Origin: Thioploca ingrica
Lineage (GTDB): Bacteria > Pseudomonadota > Gammaproteobacteria > Beggiatoales > Beggiatoaceae
DNA: 64,000 bases
Reading direction: 5' to 3'
Assembly (NCBI GenBank): GCA_000828835.1
Contig: AP014633.1
Span: 1,116,001 to 1,180,000 of the forward strand
Position numbers and translations under genes: made by a program. The stretch's first letter is position 1; every line of letters starts with the position of its first letter. A model generated the notes under the pieces. That model was not told where the DNA came from, made no database searches, and saw only the letters and a list, made by a program, of their open reading frames with translations. Shown in pieces: positions 8,997-14,932 of the stretch.

Positions 8997-11063
8997 ATGT
9001 CAGTGCAAGTATTACATAACAATCCAGCTAGAAAAAAACATCGCCTAATTACTCGTAACGACTTTGATGGACTGGTTTGTGCTGTTTTACTGAAAGAAAT
9101 TAATTTAATAGAAGAAATTTTATTTGTTAATCCCAAGGATATGCAAGAAAGTAAGGTAAATGTAACTGCTTATGATATTACAACTAATTTACCTTATGTA
9201 CCCGGTGCTTATCTTATCTTTGATCATCATTATAGCGAAACGTTAAAGTATCAAGAACGTCCAGCTAATTATATTATTGATGCTAATGCGCCATCCACCG
9301 CTCGGGTTATTTATAACTACTATGGTGGTAAAGAAATTTTTTTTAACATTAGTGAAGAAATGTTGGTGGCAGTAGATAAAGCGGATTCTGGTCATTTTAG
9401 TCGGGAAGACATTTTACATCCACAAGGATGGGTGCTATTAAATTATTTACTCGATCCGCGCAGTGGTTTAGGGCAATTTAGCGAATTTAGAATCTCTAAT
9501 TACAATTTAATGATGATGCTGATTGATTATTGCAAAAAACTCAGCATTAGTGAAATTCTAAAATTACCCGATATTAAAGAACGAGTTGATATCTACTTCA
9601 AACACCAAAAAATTTCGATGCATCAACTTGAAAGAAATGCCATCGTGTGTAATCAAGTGGTGGTGGTTGATTTTCGTGATGAAAAAGAAATTTTAGTCGC
9701 TAATCGCTTTATGATTTATGCGATGTATCCGGAATGTAATGTTTCGGTTCATCTGCTGAAGAACCAACCAAAAAATCAAACCATATTAGCGGTAGGTCGC
9801 TCTATTGTTAATTATTCTTCTACCGTGAATATCGGTGAATTAATATTACAATACGGTGGCGGTGGTCACGAAAAAGCCGGAACCTGTTCAGTCGCTAATG
9901 ATAGAGTTGAATCGATATTAGAAAAATTACTGGAACAACTCAATCTTGAACTCGTGTCAATGAAATTAATTGAAATAAACCAAGCCAATGAAAAAACTAA
10001 AGTAATCGTTGCTGAGGACCAAATTGTTCCCCAAAGAACACCCGCCCATCCAGTGGAAGTAACCACTATCCCGGTCAGCGGTTCTGCTTTGCCCACACCG
10101 GTCAATTCATCACCATTATTAGCTCAATTTGTGGCTACACCCAGTAGCACTAATCCATTACAAGTGAACTTGGATGCCTTTGCTTCTCGTGCCGGTAATG
10201 GCAAAAAAATTGTTAGTTATCAGTGGGAAAGCAATTGTGAAGCTTGCTTAATTGCGGAAGGGGTTACTTCCAGCGTACTTTTTCCTCAAGCTGGGGAATA
10301 TCAAATTACTTTGCGGATTACGGATAACTTTAATCAAACGGCAGAAGCAACTCAGACTATTAAGGTTATGGCTAAACGTCACCCACCACTCGCCGCTTTC
10401 ACTCTTTCACCTCGACAAGGACCCGCACCATTAACAGTGGTTTTAGATGCGAGTAATTCCGTCGAAAGTAATGAAGACGATGACTTTAATCATTATGATT
10501 GGTCTATCAATGGTCAACATCTAGCGGGTAAAGTAACCACGACGACTTTAACCCAGCCCGGGATTTACACCGTTATTCTTACCATAACCAATAGTGAAGG
10601 ACTCACCACCAGTAACATCCAAACCATTACAGTCAACGAATTAGAAACCACTCCATGGGTAAGTATTGGTAATCATATTAAAGCCGCTCTAAAATTTCTG
10701 GGCTTAAAAGAACATTATCAAGTGGGTGAATTTCTCAAAGTGGATTTGATGGAAAATTTACAAATTAACGATTCGCTACAACGAGTTGATTTATGGATTG
10801 CGGTTGAAACGCCGGATGGACAAACCTATTTTATGACCGGTTCACCGTTTCAACCGTTTTCACCAGAACCTAAACCATTTCGCCGCTCACTAGAGCAAAG
10901 ATCATTACAATACCGAATTTTGGAATTTGAAGTCCCTCCTAATATGGGAGGTAATTATAATTTTTATGCCATCTACAACAAAGAAGGGGCTGATTTAAGC
11001 CAACTCTTGTTTACCCAACGTTCTAACCTCGCTTTTGCGATGACTGTTCTGAGTGAACAATAG
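8997..11063 (+). CDS. DHH phosphoesterase domain fused to PKD domains
   Basis: Residues 1-320 form a DHH-family domain: TRNDFDG (D22, D24), DHH at 76-78 and the DHHA1 glycine motif GGGGHEKAGTC near 288. DHH proteins are manganese phosphodiesterases, usually acting on nucleotides or nucleic-acid ends. Residues about 375-460 and 465-555 are two PKD-like beta-sandwich domains (for example AAFTLSPRQGPAPLTV), and the last 110 residues are an unrecognised beta-rich domain with an NMGGNYNFYAIY segment. PKD domains are normally extracellular, but no signal peptide is present. CAGGAGGT supports the ATG. The N-terminal part is a close paralogue of the stand-alone gene at 21288. Confidence 0.75.
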   Translation: MSVQVLHNNPARKKHRLITRNDFDGLVCAVLLKEINLIEEILFVNPKDMQESKVNVTAYDITTNLPYVPGAYLIFDHHYSETLKYQERPANYIIDANAPSTARVIYNYYGGKEIFFNISEEMLVAVDKADSGHFSREDILHPQGWVLLNYLLDPRSGLGQFSEFRISNYNLMMMLIDYCKKLSISEILKLPDIKERVDIYFKHQKISMHQLERNAIVCNQVVVVDFRDEKEILVANRFMIYAMYPECNVSVHLLKNQPKNQTILAVGRSIVNYSSTVNIGELILQYGGGGHEKAGTCSVANDRVESILEKLLEQLNLELVSMKLIEINQANEKTKVIVAEDQIVPQRTPAHPVEVTTIPVSGSALPTPVNSSPLLAQFVATPSSTNPLQVNLDAFASRAGNGKKIVSYQWESNCEACLIAEGVTSSVLFPQAGEYQITLRITDNFNQTAEATQTIKVMAKRHPPLAAFTLSPRQGPAPLTVVLDASNSVESNEDDDFNHYDWSINGQHLAGKVTTTTLTQPGIYTVILTITNSEGLTTSNIQTITVNELETTPWVSIGNHIKAALKFLGLKEHYQVGEFLKVDLMENLQINDSLQRVDLWIAVETPDGQTYFMTGSPFQPFSPEPKPFRRSLEQRSLQYRILEFEVPPNMGGNYNFYAIYNKEGADLSQLLFTQRSNLAFAMTVLSEQ

Positions 11064-11754: not shown

Positions 11755-12142
11755 TTATTTCAACGCCTCAATATCCGTTGGTGTTAAACCAGTCATTGGT
11801 TGGATAAGCTCAATCGGTAAGCTATTTTGTTTCATCGTCCGAGCCACTGGTAATATTCCCTCTGGTCGTCCCTTCTGCCAACCTTCTTCTAAAGCTGTGT
11901 CAACCACCCCTTTTAATTCCCAATAAGTGAATAAACTTTTCTGGTATTGTTCCCGTTGTTCCGGACTTAAGTTGGTTTCTTCTAAGATTTTAGTTGAGAA
12001 TCGCCGAAATAGGGTCAAAGTTTTCCAAGTTCTGATGATGAGGCGGCAAAAGTTGATTGAGAAAATCTATCAGTAAATCTTTATTACCTTCTTCACCAAA
12101 GAGTTTTTTGAAACCAAACTCGGTATAGGGATTCAGATAACG
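11755..12142 (-). pseudogene. Broken Rpn/PD-(D/E)XK 'transposase-like' nuclease gene
   Basis: Two pieces of one family are visible in different frames. From 12142 the minus strand reads RYLNPYTEFGFKKLFGEEG..., the characteristic N-terminus of Rpn-type PD-(D/E)XK proteins, and stops at TAA after SAILN. Overlapping in another frame, 12018-11755 encodes RFSTKILEETNLSPEQREQY... and VVDTALEEGWQKGRPEG, the family's C-terminal region. The central nuclease core is missing. The gene has therefore suffered an internal deletion and frameshift and should be inactive. Confidence 0.7.
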
Positions 12143-12241
12143 GGACCTGGTGTTTGGATTAGTTCAACTCGGCAGTTGGGGAACAGGTTGTTTTATTTTA
12201 TTATTATAGCGTAAAATCATTTTTTTAGTTAGCCAACTGGA

Positions 12242-12520: not shown

Positions 12521-14932
12521 ATGGAAGCCGTAACTGATTTTATTGTGGTTGACACCGAGGGAAAAGATGAACTGAACGAAATAGCCATTATTAATAGCCA
12601 AGGTCAATTAATCTATGAAGCGTTTGTTAAGAATGAATTAAATGCTGAAACGGTTAAATTCAACACGAAACCGCGAGGAGAAATTCTGGCAGACTTGGTC
12701 AACCTAGCGCAGTCGAAATTGATTATTTGTCACTATGCCCATCACGATATTGAAGTCCTAAAAAATAGTTTTACCCAAGCCAACCTAACTTGGCCAAATT
12801 TACACTTTTCTTGTACTTTTGAACTGGCCAAATCGCTTTTTAAAAATTTAACCAGTTACTCTTTAGAATATCTCAGCCAATATTTAAATTTAAAAGTTAA
12901 TAATCAATTTTTTAATCAAAATTTTGCGCATAACGCCAGATATGATGCCCAGTTTACTTATCAACTTTATTGTCAGATTAAATCAGTACTTATGAAAGAA
13001 ACGCTGTCCCTGCAATCCAATCCCTTTGGAACGAGTCGAGTGGATACTCCTTTTCAAAATCATATTGATTTAGAAGAAATTTATCAAGAACAGTTTGAAT
13101 ACCTGAAATCTATTCTTAATGAAATTAAACAGGATCAAAATCATCAAAGTAAGGGTGCTGTGGTCATCGGGGAAGCTGGGAGTGGTAAAACCCATTTAAT
13201 GATGCGATTAGCAAAAGAATTACTGCCTCGACATCGGTTGTTATTCATTAGGCAACCGAATAATCCAGAAGCAATTCTATATCATATTTATAGTCGAATT
13301 TTGGAATCTTTGGTAGAAATCGTTCCTCATAGTGGTTATTCACAATTAGAATATTTATTAGCGCAAAGTTTTTCTAAAATTATTATCGAAATCTTAAGTA
13401 AAAAAGTGAATGTTACTCAGACGGGTGAAATGTTATTAAATACCCTGCCGCAAGACCCACTTAATATTTATAAAGTATTGGGTAACGATACTGAAAAAAA
13501 GCGCAAAAATTGGCAATTAATTGAAAAATTAACTTTAGAATGGTGGAATAGAAATTATGGGTTTGGTGGTTACGCCCCGGCTATCGTTAAAGGACTGATT
13601 CGATTTTGCAGTTATTCTGATCCCCAGAAAAGATATTGGGTGAGAAGATGGTTATCAGGACATCTTTTGGAAGCTCATGAATTAGAAAGTATTCGCTTAG
13701 ATAATTGGAGTGAAGAACTGAGCCAAGAGGATTTTTCTCTTGAAGCGATCGCCGTGTTTAGTAAACTGTCGATTGTTGATGAACCACTGCTCATTATTTT
13801 TGATCAATTAGAAGGATTAAAATACCACGAAGCCTTATTATTTCGCTTTGGCGAAGCGGTCAAAGAAATTTTCACTCATGTAGCCAATAGTTTAATTATT
13901 TTGAATTTATTTCCGGATAGATGGCAACATTTTAAGACTTTTTTTAATACGGCGATTATTGAGCGACTGTCACAATATGAAATCGTGTTAAATAAACCCT
14001 CAGAAGCGCAATTACAACAAATATTGGCTATTAAAGCGCAAGTTCAAGATCTCACTCTAGATACACTTTTTACTCCTGACGAATTAAAAGTAATTCTTGA
14101 ACGAAATTCAATTAGAAATGTTTTAAATTGGGCTTCTCATTATTATCGCCATAAAGTTGATAATATCGATTTACCGATTAAGATAAAAAGCTTTGAAGAA
14201 GAAATTCGAGCAGAACTACAAGGTTTGAAAGCGGATATCGCTTGGTTAAAACAGCAAATGCTTGCGGGTGAAAAACTACCCCCACTGCCAATGGTTAATC
14301 AGCAACCGCTTGAAGAAAATTCAACGCCGGTATCCAATCCAATTGAAAATGATGAACAACAACTTATCGTTTATTTAAATCAGCAACAAGCGTTACTTGA
14401 ACAAGCCTATCATGCTCATGTCATTATTAATGATTTTGACGATATTGGTAAAGTAAGGATTATTATTGAAGCTTTTAAAACTTTTAGGCGGTTAGAAACG
14501 GACCACTTAAGACTCGGAAAAAGAAAATTACCCGAACACCTTTTAATTAGAACACCAGAGCAAGCGTTTGTCGTGGCATTTTTACAAGTGAGTGGTCCGG
14601 CTTTTTCACCTCGAATTAAAAATTTCAATGAATTAGTGATTAACTATAAAGATATCCGTTTTGGTTTATTTAGAGATGTGAGGGAACCGATTGTCACCGG
14701 TCAGGTCAGTAAAATAGAAATAGATAAACTGAATAATGCGCCTAACGGTAAATTTATTGGTCTGGAAAAAGCCGATCGGATTACCCTCGAACTGATTTAT
14801 AAATTGATTATCGATATTCAAAATAAAGATTTGGAAATGGATTTAACCCTCGCTTTAACCTTTCTAGAAACGTATTTTAGTTCCTATTGGTTAATTAAAA
14901 TTATTAACAAGGCAGCACATATTGCAAAATAG
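12521..14932 (+). CDS. DnaQ-type (DEDDh) 3'-5' exonuclease fused to P-loop ATPase
   Basis: Residues 1-155 are a DEDDh exonuclease with all expected acidic/His positions: D11 and E13 (VVDTEG), D76 (CHYAHHDIEVL), H137 and D142 (HNARYD). After a linker, residues about 185-565 form an ATPase with Walker A GEAGSGKT (217-224) and a Walker B-like LLIIFDQ (D428). A helical segment (about 565-600) and a C-terminal domain of about 170 residues that I do not recognise follow. No membrane segment or signal is seen. The combination suggests a nuclease controlled or loaded by ATP hydrolysis, in DNA repair or defence; this is inference. The 3' end overlaps the convergent nudB by 29 bases. Confidence 0.75.
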   Translation: MEAVTDFIVVDTEGKDELNEIAIINSQGQLIYEAFVKNELNAETVKFNTKPRGEILADLVNLAQSKLIICHYAHHDIEVLKNSFTQANLTWPNLHFSCTFELAKSLFKNLTSYSLEYLSQYLNLKVNNQFFNQNFAHNARYDAQFTYQLYCQIKSVLMKETLSLQSNPFGTSRVDTPFQNHIDLEEIYQEQFEYLKSILNEIKQDQNHQSKGAVVIGEAGSGKTHLMMRLAKELLPRHRLLFIRQPNNPEAILYHIYSRILESLVEIVPHSGYSQLEYLLAQSFSKIIIEILSKKVNVTQTGEMLLNTLPQDPLNIYKVLGNDTEKKRKNWQLIEKLTLEWWNRNYGFGGYAPAIVKGLIRFCSYSDPQKRYWVRRWLSGHLLEAHELESIRLDNWSEELSQEDFSLEAIAVFSKLSIVDEPLLIIFDQLEGLKYHEALLFRFGEAVKEIFTHVANSLIILNLFPDRWQHFKTFFNTAIIERLSQYEIVLNKPSEAQLQQILAIKAQVQDLTLDTLFTPDELKVILERNSIRNVLNWASHYYRHKVDNIDLPIKIKSFEEEIRAELQGLKADIAWLKQQMLAGEKLPPLPMVNQQPLEENSTPVSNPIENDEQQLIVYLNQQQALLEQAYHAHVIINDFDDIGKVRIIIEAFKTFRRLETDHLRLGKRKLPEHLLIRTPEQAFVVAFLQVSGPAFSPRIKNFNELVINYKDIRFGLFRDVREPIVTGQVSKIEIDKLNNAPNGKFIGLEKADRITLELIYKLIIDIQNKDLEMDLTLALTFLETYFSSYWLIKIINKAAHIAK

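What the first reader, a model, noticed from the sequence alone, without database searches (positions are those of the whole stretch)
12521..14932. DnaQ-type exonuclease fused to a P-loop ATPase, a possible new nuclease system
A complete DEDDh site (D11/E13/D76/H137/D142) is joined in one chain to an ATPase (GEAGSGKT; LLIIFDQ) and a 170-residue C-terminal domain I cannot place. I know of no standard repair enzyme with this order. Its neighbours are two dead PD-(D/E)XK genes, which suggests an accessory patch. An ATP-gated exonuclease could act in phage defence or in DNA or RNA clearance.
Basis: partly seen in the sequence, partly recalled or inferred. Interest (0 to 1): 0.72.

Follow-up and report, generated by a model that had tools for sequence, protein, structure and literature searches.

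The report
Exonuclease-ATPase fusion on mobile DNA
A single bacterial protein joins a DNA- or RNA-chewing enzyme, an ATP-driven switch-like domain and what looks like a disarmed restriction-enzyme fold; it is shared by relatives of the sulfur bacterium Thioploca and by plasmids of cyanobacteria, where it sits among virus-defence genes, so it may be an undescribed defence enzyme, but this has not been tested.

Summary
The ORF 12521-14932 is real, intact and under purifying selection (dN/dS 0.11 against a Thioploca relative). Residues 1-160 are a DEDDh 3'-5' exonuclease (five residues complete in 17 of 18 copies). Residues 161-560 are an AAA+ ATPase with the Orc/Cdc6/TnsC fold and a STAND-like Walker B (FDQLE). 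The family is narrow: clear matches in 15 of 25 genomes of the window's own family, no full-length copy reported elsewhere in class (369) or phylum (398) samples, yet full-length on plasmids of Nostoc, Calothrix, Tolypothrix and Synechococcus elongatus. In 6 of 6 distinct full-length plasmid loci it lies close to known or candidate defence genes (DISARM, DUF262, HerA-NurA, Thoeris, type IIG RM); no background rate was measured. In the window's family it sits mostly among housekeeping genes. The ATPase plus C-terminal core is shared with distant proteins that pair it with a small upstream gene instead of the exonuclease; one clade has no exonuclease. Most likely a mobile, ATP-controlled exonuclease against foreign nucleic acid; plasmid or chromosome maintenance is not excluded.

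The parts
12521..14932 (+). whole gene: exonuclease - AAA+ ATPase - helix/linker - C-terminal REase-like domain (803 aa)
   Evidence: homologues; dN/dS 0.106
12521..13000 (+). residues 1-160: DEDDh 3'-5' exonuclease domain (D11, E13, D76, H137, D142)
   Evidence: Pfam RNase_T; PADLOC DEDDh E 1.6e-12; VIA Z 17.8 to PolC, 16.9 to a DnaQ domain; catalytic residues
13001..14200 (+). residues 161-560: AAA+ ATPase of Orc/Cdc6/TnsC fold
   Evidence: Pfam AAA_16; VIA Z 16.4 to Orc (7jgr_G), 15.7 to archaeal Orc2 (1w5s_A), 14.4 to TnsC (7mcs_F)
13169..13192 (+). Walker A, residues 217-224 GEAGSGKT
   Evidence: sequence; G217, G220, G222, K223, T224 invariant in alignment A2
13787..13813 (+). Walker B, residues 423-431 LLIIFDQLE
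   Evidence: D428 and E431 invariant in 18 of 18 rows
14192..14353 (+). residues 558-611: long helix (558-581) then low-confidence, faster-changing linker
   Evidence: AF2 model; dN/dS 0.262 for 561-611
14354..14929 (+). residues 612-803: C-terminal domain, probably PD-(D/E)XK-like fold without the (D/E)xK residues
   Evidence: AF2 pLDDT 91.5; VIA Z 5-7 to PD-(D/E)XK nucleases; alignments
14672..14683 (+). RDxR motif (R718, D719, R721)
   Evidence: R718 and D719 invariant in 18 of 18 rows; R721 in 16 of 18, not in the two S. elongatus rows; RDxR in 5 of 6 distant relatives, TDxR in L043

Best explanation
The gene encodes a single-protein, ATP-controlled 3'-5' exonuclease carried as a mobile, accessory unit, most likely aimed at foreign nucleic acid (phage or competing plasmid DNA). 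Proposed working: the Orc/TnsC-type ATPase assembles on DNA when ATP is bound (inferred from the fold); the C-terminal disarmed PD-(D/E)XK-like domain contacts DNA or another trigger (inferred); the tethered DEDDh domain is thereby brought to a 3' end and degrades it (activity inferred from complete catalytic residues). Shown: architecture, conservation, presence in two phyla, plasmid location close to defence genes, one exonuclease-less clade. Not shown: substrate, ATP control, any defence phenotype.
For: Complete DEDDh site in 17 of 18 copies and an intact P-loop lysine in 18 of 18 rows. Purifying selection on each domain (exonuclease 0.144, ATPase 0.082, C-terminal 0.094). Patchy presence, clear matches in 15 of 25 family members. 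Nine cyanobacterial plasmid records match, 7 over at least 80% of the query; three of the nine are typed conjugative, one of these with only a fragment. 6 of 6 distinct full-length plasmid loci have known or candidate defence genes close by: DUF262 (PADLOC candidate HEC-05, E 4.2e-47) 33 nt downstream in Nostoc HK-01; its orthologue, split by a transposase, 30 nt downstream in Nostoc C057; DrmABC plus a DUF262-type gene upstream in Calothrix; HerA and NurA upstream in Tolypothrix; Thoeris ThsB/ThsA downstream in S. elongatus PCC 11801; type IIG RM 45 nt downstream in S. elongatus IITB3. In G006 the exonuclease is a separate ORF overlapping the ATPase by 11 nt, which suggests that the two parts act together.
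Against: In the window's family the copies lie mostly beside housekeeping genes; PADLOC on 10 chosen neighbours gave no match for 8 and only domain-level matches for 2. No background rate of defence genes on these plasmids was computed, and such plasmids hold many. HerA-NurA is also a repair pair (recalled). Five copies in the tree lack the exonuclease. Three plasmids carry a close DUF262 copy without this gene, so that link is loose. No phage record matches, the pattern-limited scan of viral contigs found no relative, and PADLOC and PHROGs give only domain-level hits. In S. elongatus it lies next to ParA on two plasmids, which also suits a maintenance role.
Confidence: 0.45

Rival explanations
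1. A maintenance or repair nuclease: the Orc-like ATPase binds replication or recombination structures of the plasmid or chromosome and the exonuclease trims 3' ends.
For: Orc/Cdc6 fold; ParA next door, divergently, on both S. elongatus plasmid types; HerA-NurA beside the Tolypothrix copy; copies in the window's family mostly beside housekeeping genes, in G006 tightly packed between two other genes.
Against: No or only weak match in 10 of 25 family genomes, so hardly essential; the two S. elongatus plasmids fetched whole have their own CyRepA1 replication protein; neighbours differ between the Nostocales plasmids.
Confidence: 0.25
2. A STAND-type abortive-infection protein: the C-terminal domain senses a phage product, the ATPase oligomerises, and the exonuclease acts as a toxic effector on host nucleic acid.
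For: STAND-like Walker B FDQLE (resemblance recalled); weak library hits to nSTAND families and, around the P-loop, to Avs2; order N-terminal effector, ATPase, C-terminal domain; a distant relative (L043) weakly matches the anti-phage protein model DS41_1 (24.6 bits, cut-off 370).
Against: No long repeat sensor; the C-terminal part is a small alpha/beta domain; DEDDh exonucleases are not usual abortive effectors (recalled); the ATPase rows listed by VIA are Orc/Cdc6 and TnsC.
Confidence: 0.15
3. The ATPase plus C-terminal domain is the working unit (a DNA-bound switch or recruiter, as TnsC-type ATPases are) and the exonuclease is an optional attachment.
For: Distant relatives have the same core without exonuclease and with a small upstream gene; five exonuclease-less copies form one clade (96/94 support) and keep the core.
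Against: Where present, the exonuclease active site is kept in 17 of 18 copies and its dN/dS is 0.144.
Confidence: 0.15

Closest known systems
DEDDh exonucleases of the PolC / DnaQ / RNase T / Exo X / Cap18 group
   Same: fold (VIA Z 14-18) and the five catalytic residues
   Different: here joined to an AAA+ ATPase; scores far below the NCBIfam cut-offs
DnaQ-DinG fusions (S. aureus DinG, PMC12345164; only the abstract start in a search listing seen)
   Same: N-terminal 3'-5' exonuclease domain followed by an ATP-driven domain
   Different: DinG is a superfamily 2 helicase; here the ATPase is AAA+ of Orc/TnsC type with a further C-terminal domain
Orc/Cdc6 and TnsC AAA+ ATPases
   Same: ATPase fold over 237-266 residues, Z 13.9-16.4
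   Different: sequence similarity marginal; no winged-helix domain identified after the ATPase
PD-(D/E)XK nucleases (VC1899, XisH, Can2, EndoMS, Bax1, FokI, McrBC)
   Same: core order of strands and helices (my reading of the DSSP string) and weak structural matches, Z 5-7
   Different: (D/E)xK positions occupied by invariant F-L and Q/H/Y; RD motif instead
Avs and other STAND defence ATPases
   Same: effector - ATPase - C-terminal domain order, FDQLE Walker B (recalled)
   Different: no large repeat sensor; only P-loop-level matches
Unnamed ATPases with a small upstream gene in other Pseudomonadota (alignment A6)
   Same: ATPase + C-terminal core homologous, hhalign 99.8%, E 2.7e-28
   Different: no exonuclease; a separate upstream gene

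Membership tests
DEDDh 3'-5' exonucleases | D, E, D, H, D catalytic residues in three Exo motifs | tested here: met
   17 of 18 copies complete, one D76E
DEDDh 3'-5' exonucleases | RNase H-like exonuclease fold | tested here: met
   VIA Z 17.8, rmsd 3.2, 153 aligned to PolC; Z 16.9, rmsd 3.2, 149 aligned to a DnaQ domain
DEDDh 3'-5' exonucleases | measured 3'-5' exonuclease activity | not testable with these tools
   needs a bench assay
Housekeeping PolC, DinG, DnaQ epsilon, RNase T, Exo X | NCBIfam cut-off reached | tested here: not met
   39.2 bits against 873 (PolC), 31.6 against 789 (DinG), 16.7 against 246.2 (RNase T), 23.5 against 202 (Exo X)
Orc/Cdc6/TnsC-type AAA+ ATPase | AAA+ fold of this type with Walker A and B | tested here: met
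   Z 16.4, rmsd 3.4, 244 aligned to Orc (7jgr_G); Z 15.7, rmsd 3.9, 266 aligned to 1w5s_A; K223, D428, E431 invariant
Orc/Cdc6/TnsC-type AAA+ ATPase | C-terminal winged-helix domain (Orc/Cdc6) | tested here: inconclusive
   none identified by library searches; the C-terminal domain models otherwise
PD-(D/E)XK superfamily | core fold | tested here: inconclusive
   by title and recall nearly all of the first 31 VIA rows have this fold, but Z is only 5-7 (VC1899 Z 7.0, rmsd 4.0, 120 aligned), about 11 of the 50 rows are other proteins, Foldseek has no match under E 0.001 and a mixed list, and there is no sequence match
PD-(D/E)XK superfamily | (D/E)xK catalytic residues | tested here: not met
   F687-L688-Q/H/Y689 in 18 of 18 rows; the position was mapped from secondary structure, an inference
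STAND/Avs defence proteins | large C-terminal repeat sensor | tested here: not met
   the C-terminal part is a 192-residue alpha/beta domain
Known PADLOC defence systems | whole-protein match to a system component | tested here: not met
   only domain-level hits (DEDDh, PDC-S48, mad8)

The most novel reading that the evidence does not exclude
An undescribed class of one-gene immune or anti-plasmid enzyme: an Orc/TnsC-like ATPase that loads on DNA through a disarmed restriction-enzyme fold and delivers a tethered 3'-5' exonuclease. It would have arisen when an older ATPase + RD-motif core exchanged its small partner protein for an exonuclease, and then have moved between sulfur bacteria of the Thioploca family and cyanobacterial plasmids.
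Probability: 0.33. Interest if true: 0.72.

Novelty: new variant of a known kind. Interest (0 to 1): 0.52.

Why it matters
It would add a nuclease-ATPase architecture that the libraries searched here (Pfam, NCBIfam, PADLOC, PHROGs) do not recognise as a whole, and it points to a module exchange on a little-studied ATPase core. It also gives a concrete gene present in both sulfur bacteria and cyanobacteria. Gene exchange of such filamentous bacteria with distant lineages has been reported (PMC6390638, PMC5108060; only titles and abstract starts in a search listing seen, where the partner lineage was cut off; cyanobacteria as partner is recalled). The S. elongatus PCC 11801 plasmid copy makes a defence-or-maintenance test practicable in a cultured strain.

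Tried and rejected
Known housekeeping enzyme: rejected on NCBIfam cut-offs. Plasmid replication initiator: unlikely, since both S. elongatus plasmids fetched whole carry CyRepA1 and the window copy lies in a single 4.8 Mb contig. Phage gene: no match in phages; the viral-contig scan used two short peptide patterns and found no relative. Obligate partner of DUF262: rejected, since three plasmids with close DUF262 copies are not among the records with this gene. Tie to the downstream NUDIX gene: shared with G001 and with the exonuclease-less copy in G018, but in G010 the NUDIX gene is far away; read as adjacency only. Exonuclease remnants upstream of exonuclease-less copies: none convincing (two short hits, E 0.02 and 0.05) in six distinct places, of which only four have over 1 kb of upstream sequence; the ten loci given to the script overlap. 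A 62-residue exonuclease piece lies on another G020 contig (L088). Sequence search of the C-terminal profile against the PDB: nothing up to E 10. Of the 61 genomes outside the family matched, almost all hits are in the exonuclease range and were set aside as generic DnaQ-type; G065's is PriA by eye; G197 and G052 proved to be the distant relatives L075 and L080. A second match in G022 (L081) is a NACHT-like protein by eye. The deep branches of the tree are unreliable (long branches, odd composition). Folds not listed by VIA are not excluded. Promoter and terminator scans were no better than shuffles. Paper searches (15 of 23 listed; 6 of 7; 5 of 5; 6 of 6) listed no paper whose title or abstract start describes this architecture; passages of PMC12458937 and PMC13092281 were seen; most subscription papers are not in the library.

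The G023 copy is cut by a contig end. One search's output was cut. In one search the ATPase and its upstream partner family were both listed in 4 of 8 loci (partner in 6, ATPase in 6): in L105 and L096 a longer overlapping frame displaced the ATPase; L106 and L109 show no partner. The small partner gene had no Pfam match in the two cases tested (one an uninformative E 0.087); 'winged-helix-like' would be only my reading. Housekeeping neighbours were named by eye; only 10 were scanned with PADLOC.

Full report
The gene. The ORF at 12521-14932 (+) is intact, 803 codons plus stop. It lies in a 4.8 Mb single-contig genome at G000:C1:1128521-1130929. Its nearest relative is 92% identical, in a Thioploca metagenome genome. 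Between these two, dN/dS is 0.106 over the gene and low in each domain (exonuclease 0.144, ATPase 0.082, C-terminal 0.094; linker 0.262), so all three parts appear to be maintained.

Domains. AlphaFold2 on a 12-row alignment gave mean pLDDT 80. Residues 1-160 match PolC and DnaQ exonucleases (VIA Z 17.8 and 16.9), with the DEDDh residues complete in 17 of 18 copies. Residues 161-560 match Orc (7jgr_G, Z 16.4), archaeal Orc2 (1w5s_A, Z 15.7) and TnsC (7mcs_F, Z 14.4); K223, D428 and E431 do not vary in 18 rows. Residues 612-803, folded alone, gave pLDDT 91.5. Foldseek found nothing under E 0.001, and its list is mixed (Cap4, EcoT38I, Bax1, but also APOBECs and small GTPases). The VIA list starts with proteins that by title and recall nearly all have the PD-(D/E)XK fold through row 31: VC1899 Z 7.0, XisH 6.2, Can2 5.5, EndoMS 5.4, Bax1 5.3, FokI 5.0, McrBC 4.9; about 11 of the 50 rows are other proteins. 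Scores of this size can mean only a common arrangement; the agreement of the list is the argument. Mapped by secondary structure, the (D/E)xK place is filled by F687-L688 and Q/H/Y689 in 18 of 18 rows, so the domain is probably not a nuclease of the usual kind. D640, D641, K644, R698, R718, D719 and R753 are invariant.

Relatives. Of 40 related genomes 17 match, all within the window's family (25 of the 40); two of these matches are weak (G004, G005), leaving 15 of 25, and 0 of 15 outside. G000, G001, G008, G009, G010, G013, G017, G021, G022 and G024 have exonuclease and ATPase in one chain; G006 has two ORFs overlapping by 11 nt; in G012, G018 and G020 only exonuclease-less copies were seen; G008 has a second, exonuclease-less copy; G023 is cut off. 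Among 369 genomes of the class only 4 have the full protein, all in the family, one of them new (G306); among 398 of the phylum only the window's own. The plasmid collection gave 9 records, all cyanobacterial, 7 covering at least 80% of the query. In a tree of the ATPase and C-terminal parts the six cyanobacterial rows form one group (100/99) and the five exonuclease-less rows another (96/94), which suggests one loss; deep branches are unsure.

Older core. Proteins in other genomes (L043, L075, L076, L077, L078, L080) share the ATPase and C-terminal core without exonuclease. hhalign of alignment A5 against A6 gives 99.8%, E 2.7e-28, over model columns 2-625. For the C-terminal part alone the score is 42.3 (probability 79.9%, E 1.4e-5), against at most 15.2 in 20 column-shuffled controls. 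tblastn of L080 finds the Tolypothrix fusion at 24.8% identity, E 2e-6. These ATPases have a small gene directly upstream in the 5 loci of this kind and in L043, in L075 and L076 overlapping by 4 nt. In a further genus partner and ATPase were both listed in 4 of 8 loci. Alignment A6 found 18 of 299 genomes at E 1e-6, the window's own among them and 10 from that one genus. The partner stands where the exonuclease ORF stands in G006, which reads as a module exchange (inference; the partners of different genera were not shown to be related).

Neighbourhood. In the window's family the flanks differ from genome to genome. Shared flanking families among 18 loci are few: a receiver-domain cluster in 6, NUDIX in 3, and RadC, QueE and an ABC ATPase cluster in 2 each (names by eye except RadC). 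Most neighbours look like housekeeping genes. A few conflict-type genes were seen by eye: HicB- and HigBA-like genes near the exonuclease-less G008 copy, Rpn-type genes near the G009 and G021 copies, a CHAT-like piece near the G017 copy, a STAND-like ATPase near the G009 copy. Of 10 chosen neighbours PADLOC matched 2, at domain level only. On plasmids, 6 of 6 distinct full-length loci have known or candidate defence genes at hand: Nostoc HK-01, DUF262 33 nt downstream (candidate system HEC-05, E 4.2e-47); Nostoc C057, its orthologue 30 nt downstream, split by a transposase (80-90% identical pieces; not itself scanned); Calothrix NIES-22, DrmA, DrmB, DrmC and a DUF262-type gene upstream; Tolypothrix PCC 7910, HerA and NurA upstream with one small gene between; S. 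elongatus PCC 11801, Thoeris ThsB and ThsA downstream; S. elongatus IITB3, type IIG RM 45 nt downstream. The neighbours scanned were chosen by me, and HerA-NurA is also a repair pair (recalled), so one of the six is ambiguous. The IITB5 and IITB8 plasmids have the same length as IITB3's and were not counted apart. The fragment in Nostoc 5183 (an 85-codon match, followed by a transposase gene, with a NucS-domain gene and DNA methyltransferases near) was left out of the count. No background rate was measured; the Tolypothrix and IITB3 plasmids hold many nuclease or restriction genes. Three plasmids carry the DUF262 gene without ours; on one of them it lies near DrmC.

Mechanism. Most likely the ATPase assembles on DNA, the C-terminal domain provides binding or a trigger, and the exonuclease works on a 3' end. 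The parts and their conservation are shown; the sequence of events is inferred. Defence (0.45) is favoured over maintenance (0.25) because of the plasmid context, patchiness and presence in two phyla, while the chromosomal copies keep the question open.

Novelty. The Pfam, NCBIfam, PADLOC and PHROGs matches are to single domains only, and four paper searches listed no paper on the architecture. Each module is of a known kind, so I rate it a new variant of a known kind.

Noticed in passing
window 8997-11063 (+): 688-aa protein with a DHH-phosphoesterase-like N-terminus (DHHA1 match, E 0.0018, below cut-off) followed by two PKD domains; an odd mix of a cytosolic-type enzyme and surface-type repeats.
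   Followed up: no
window 11755-12163 (-): Broken PDDEXK_2 (transposase-like nuclease) remnant upstream of the gene; not seen by blastn in the Thioploca relative.
   Followed up: partly
L038 1492-3171 (-): A second exonuclease-less copy in G018 is followed by a frame with many near-identical 21-residue repeats (KALEEKITAKGVEPVALTEQL and variants) before the C-terminal domain, like an expansion of the linker region.
   Followed up: no
L105-L111, L075-L080: A recurring two-gene unit (small upstream gene + Orc-like ATPase with RD-motif domain) in other Pseudomonadota, frequent in one genus, with otherwise variable neighbours; function unknown.
   Followed up: partly
L013 (G022 copy): The exonuclease has E in place of the second catalytic D (position 76).
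   Followed up: no
L091, L092 (S. elongatus plasmids): Two plasmids share ParA and the exonuclease-ATPase as neighbours, but carry different defence genes right behind it (Thoeris in one, type IIG RM in the other), which looks like an insertion hotspot.
   Followed up: partly
L032 5058-6999 (+): Two tandem Rpn-type (PD-(D/E)XK transposase-like, by eye) genes close to the G009 copy.
   Followed up: no
L043 7434-9659 (-): This distant relative weakly matches the NCBIfam anti-phage model DS41_1 (24.6 bits, cut-off 370); DS-41 is named among validated systems in a passage of PMC13092281.
   Followed up: no
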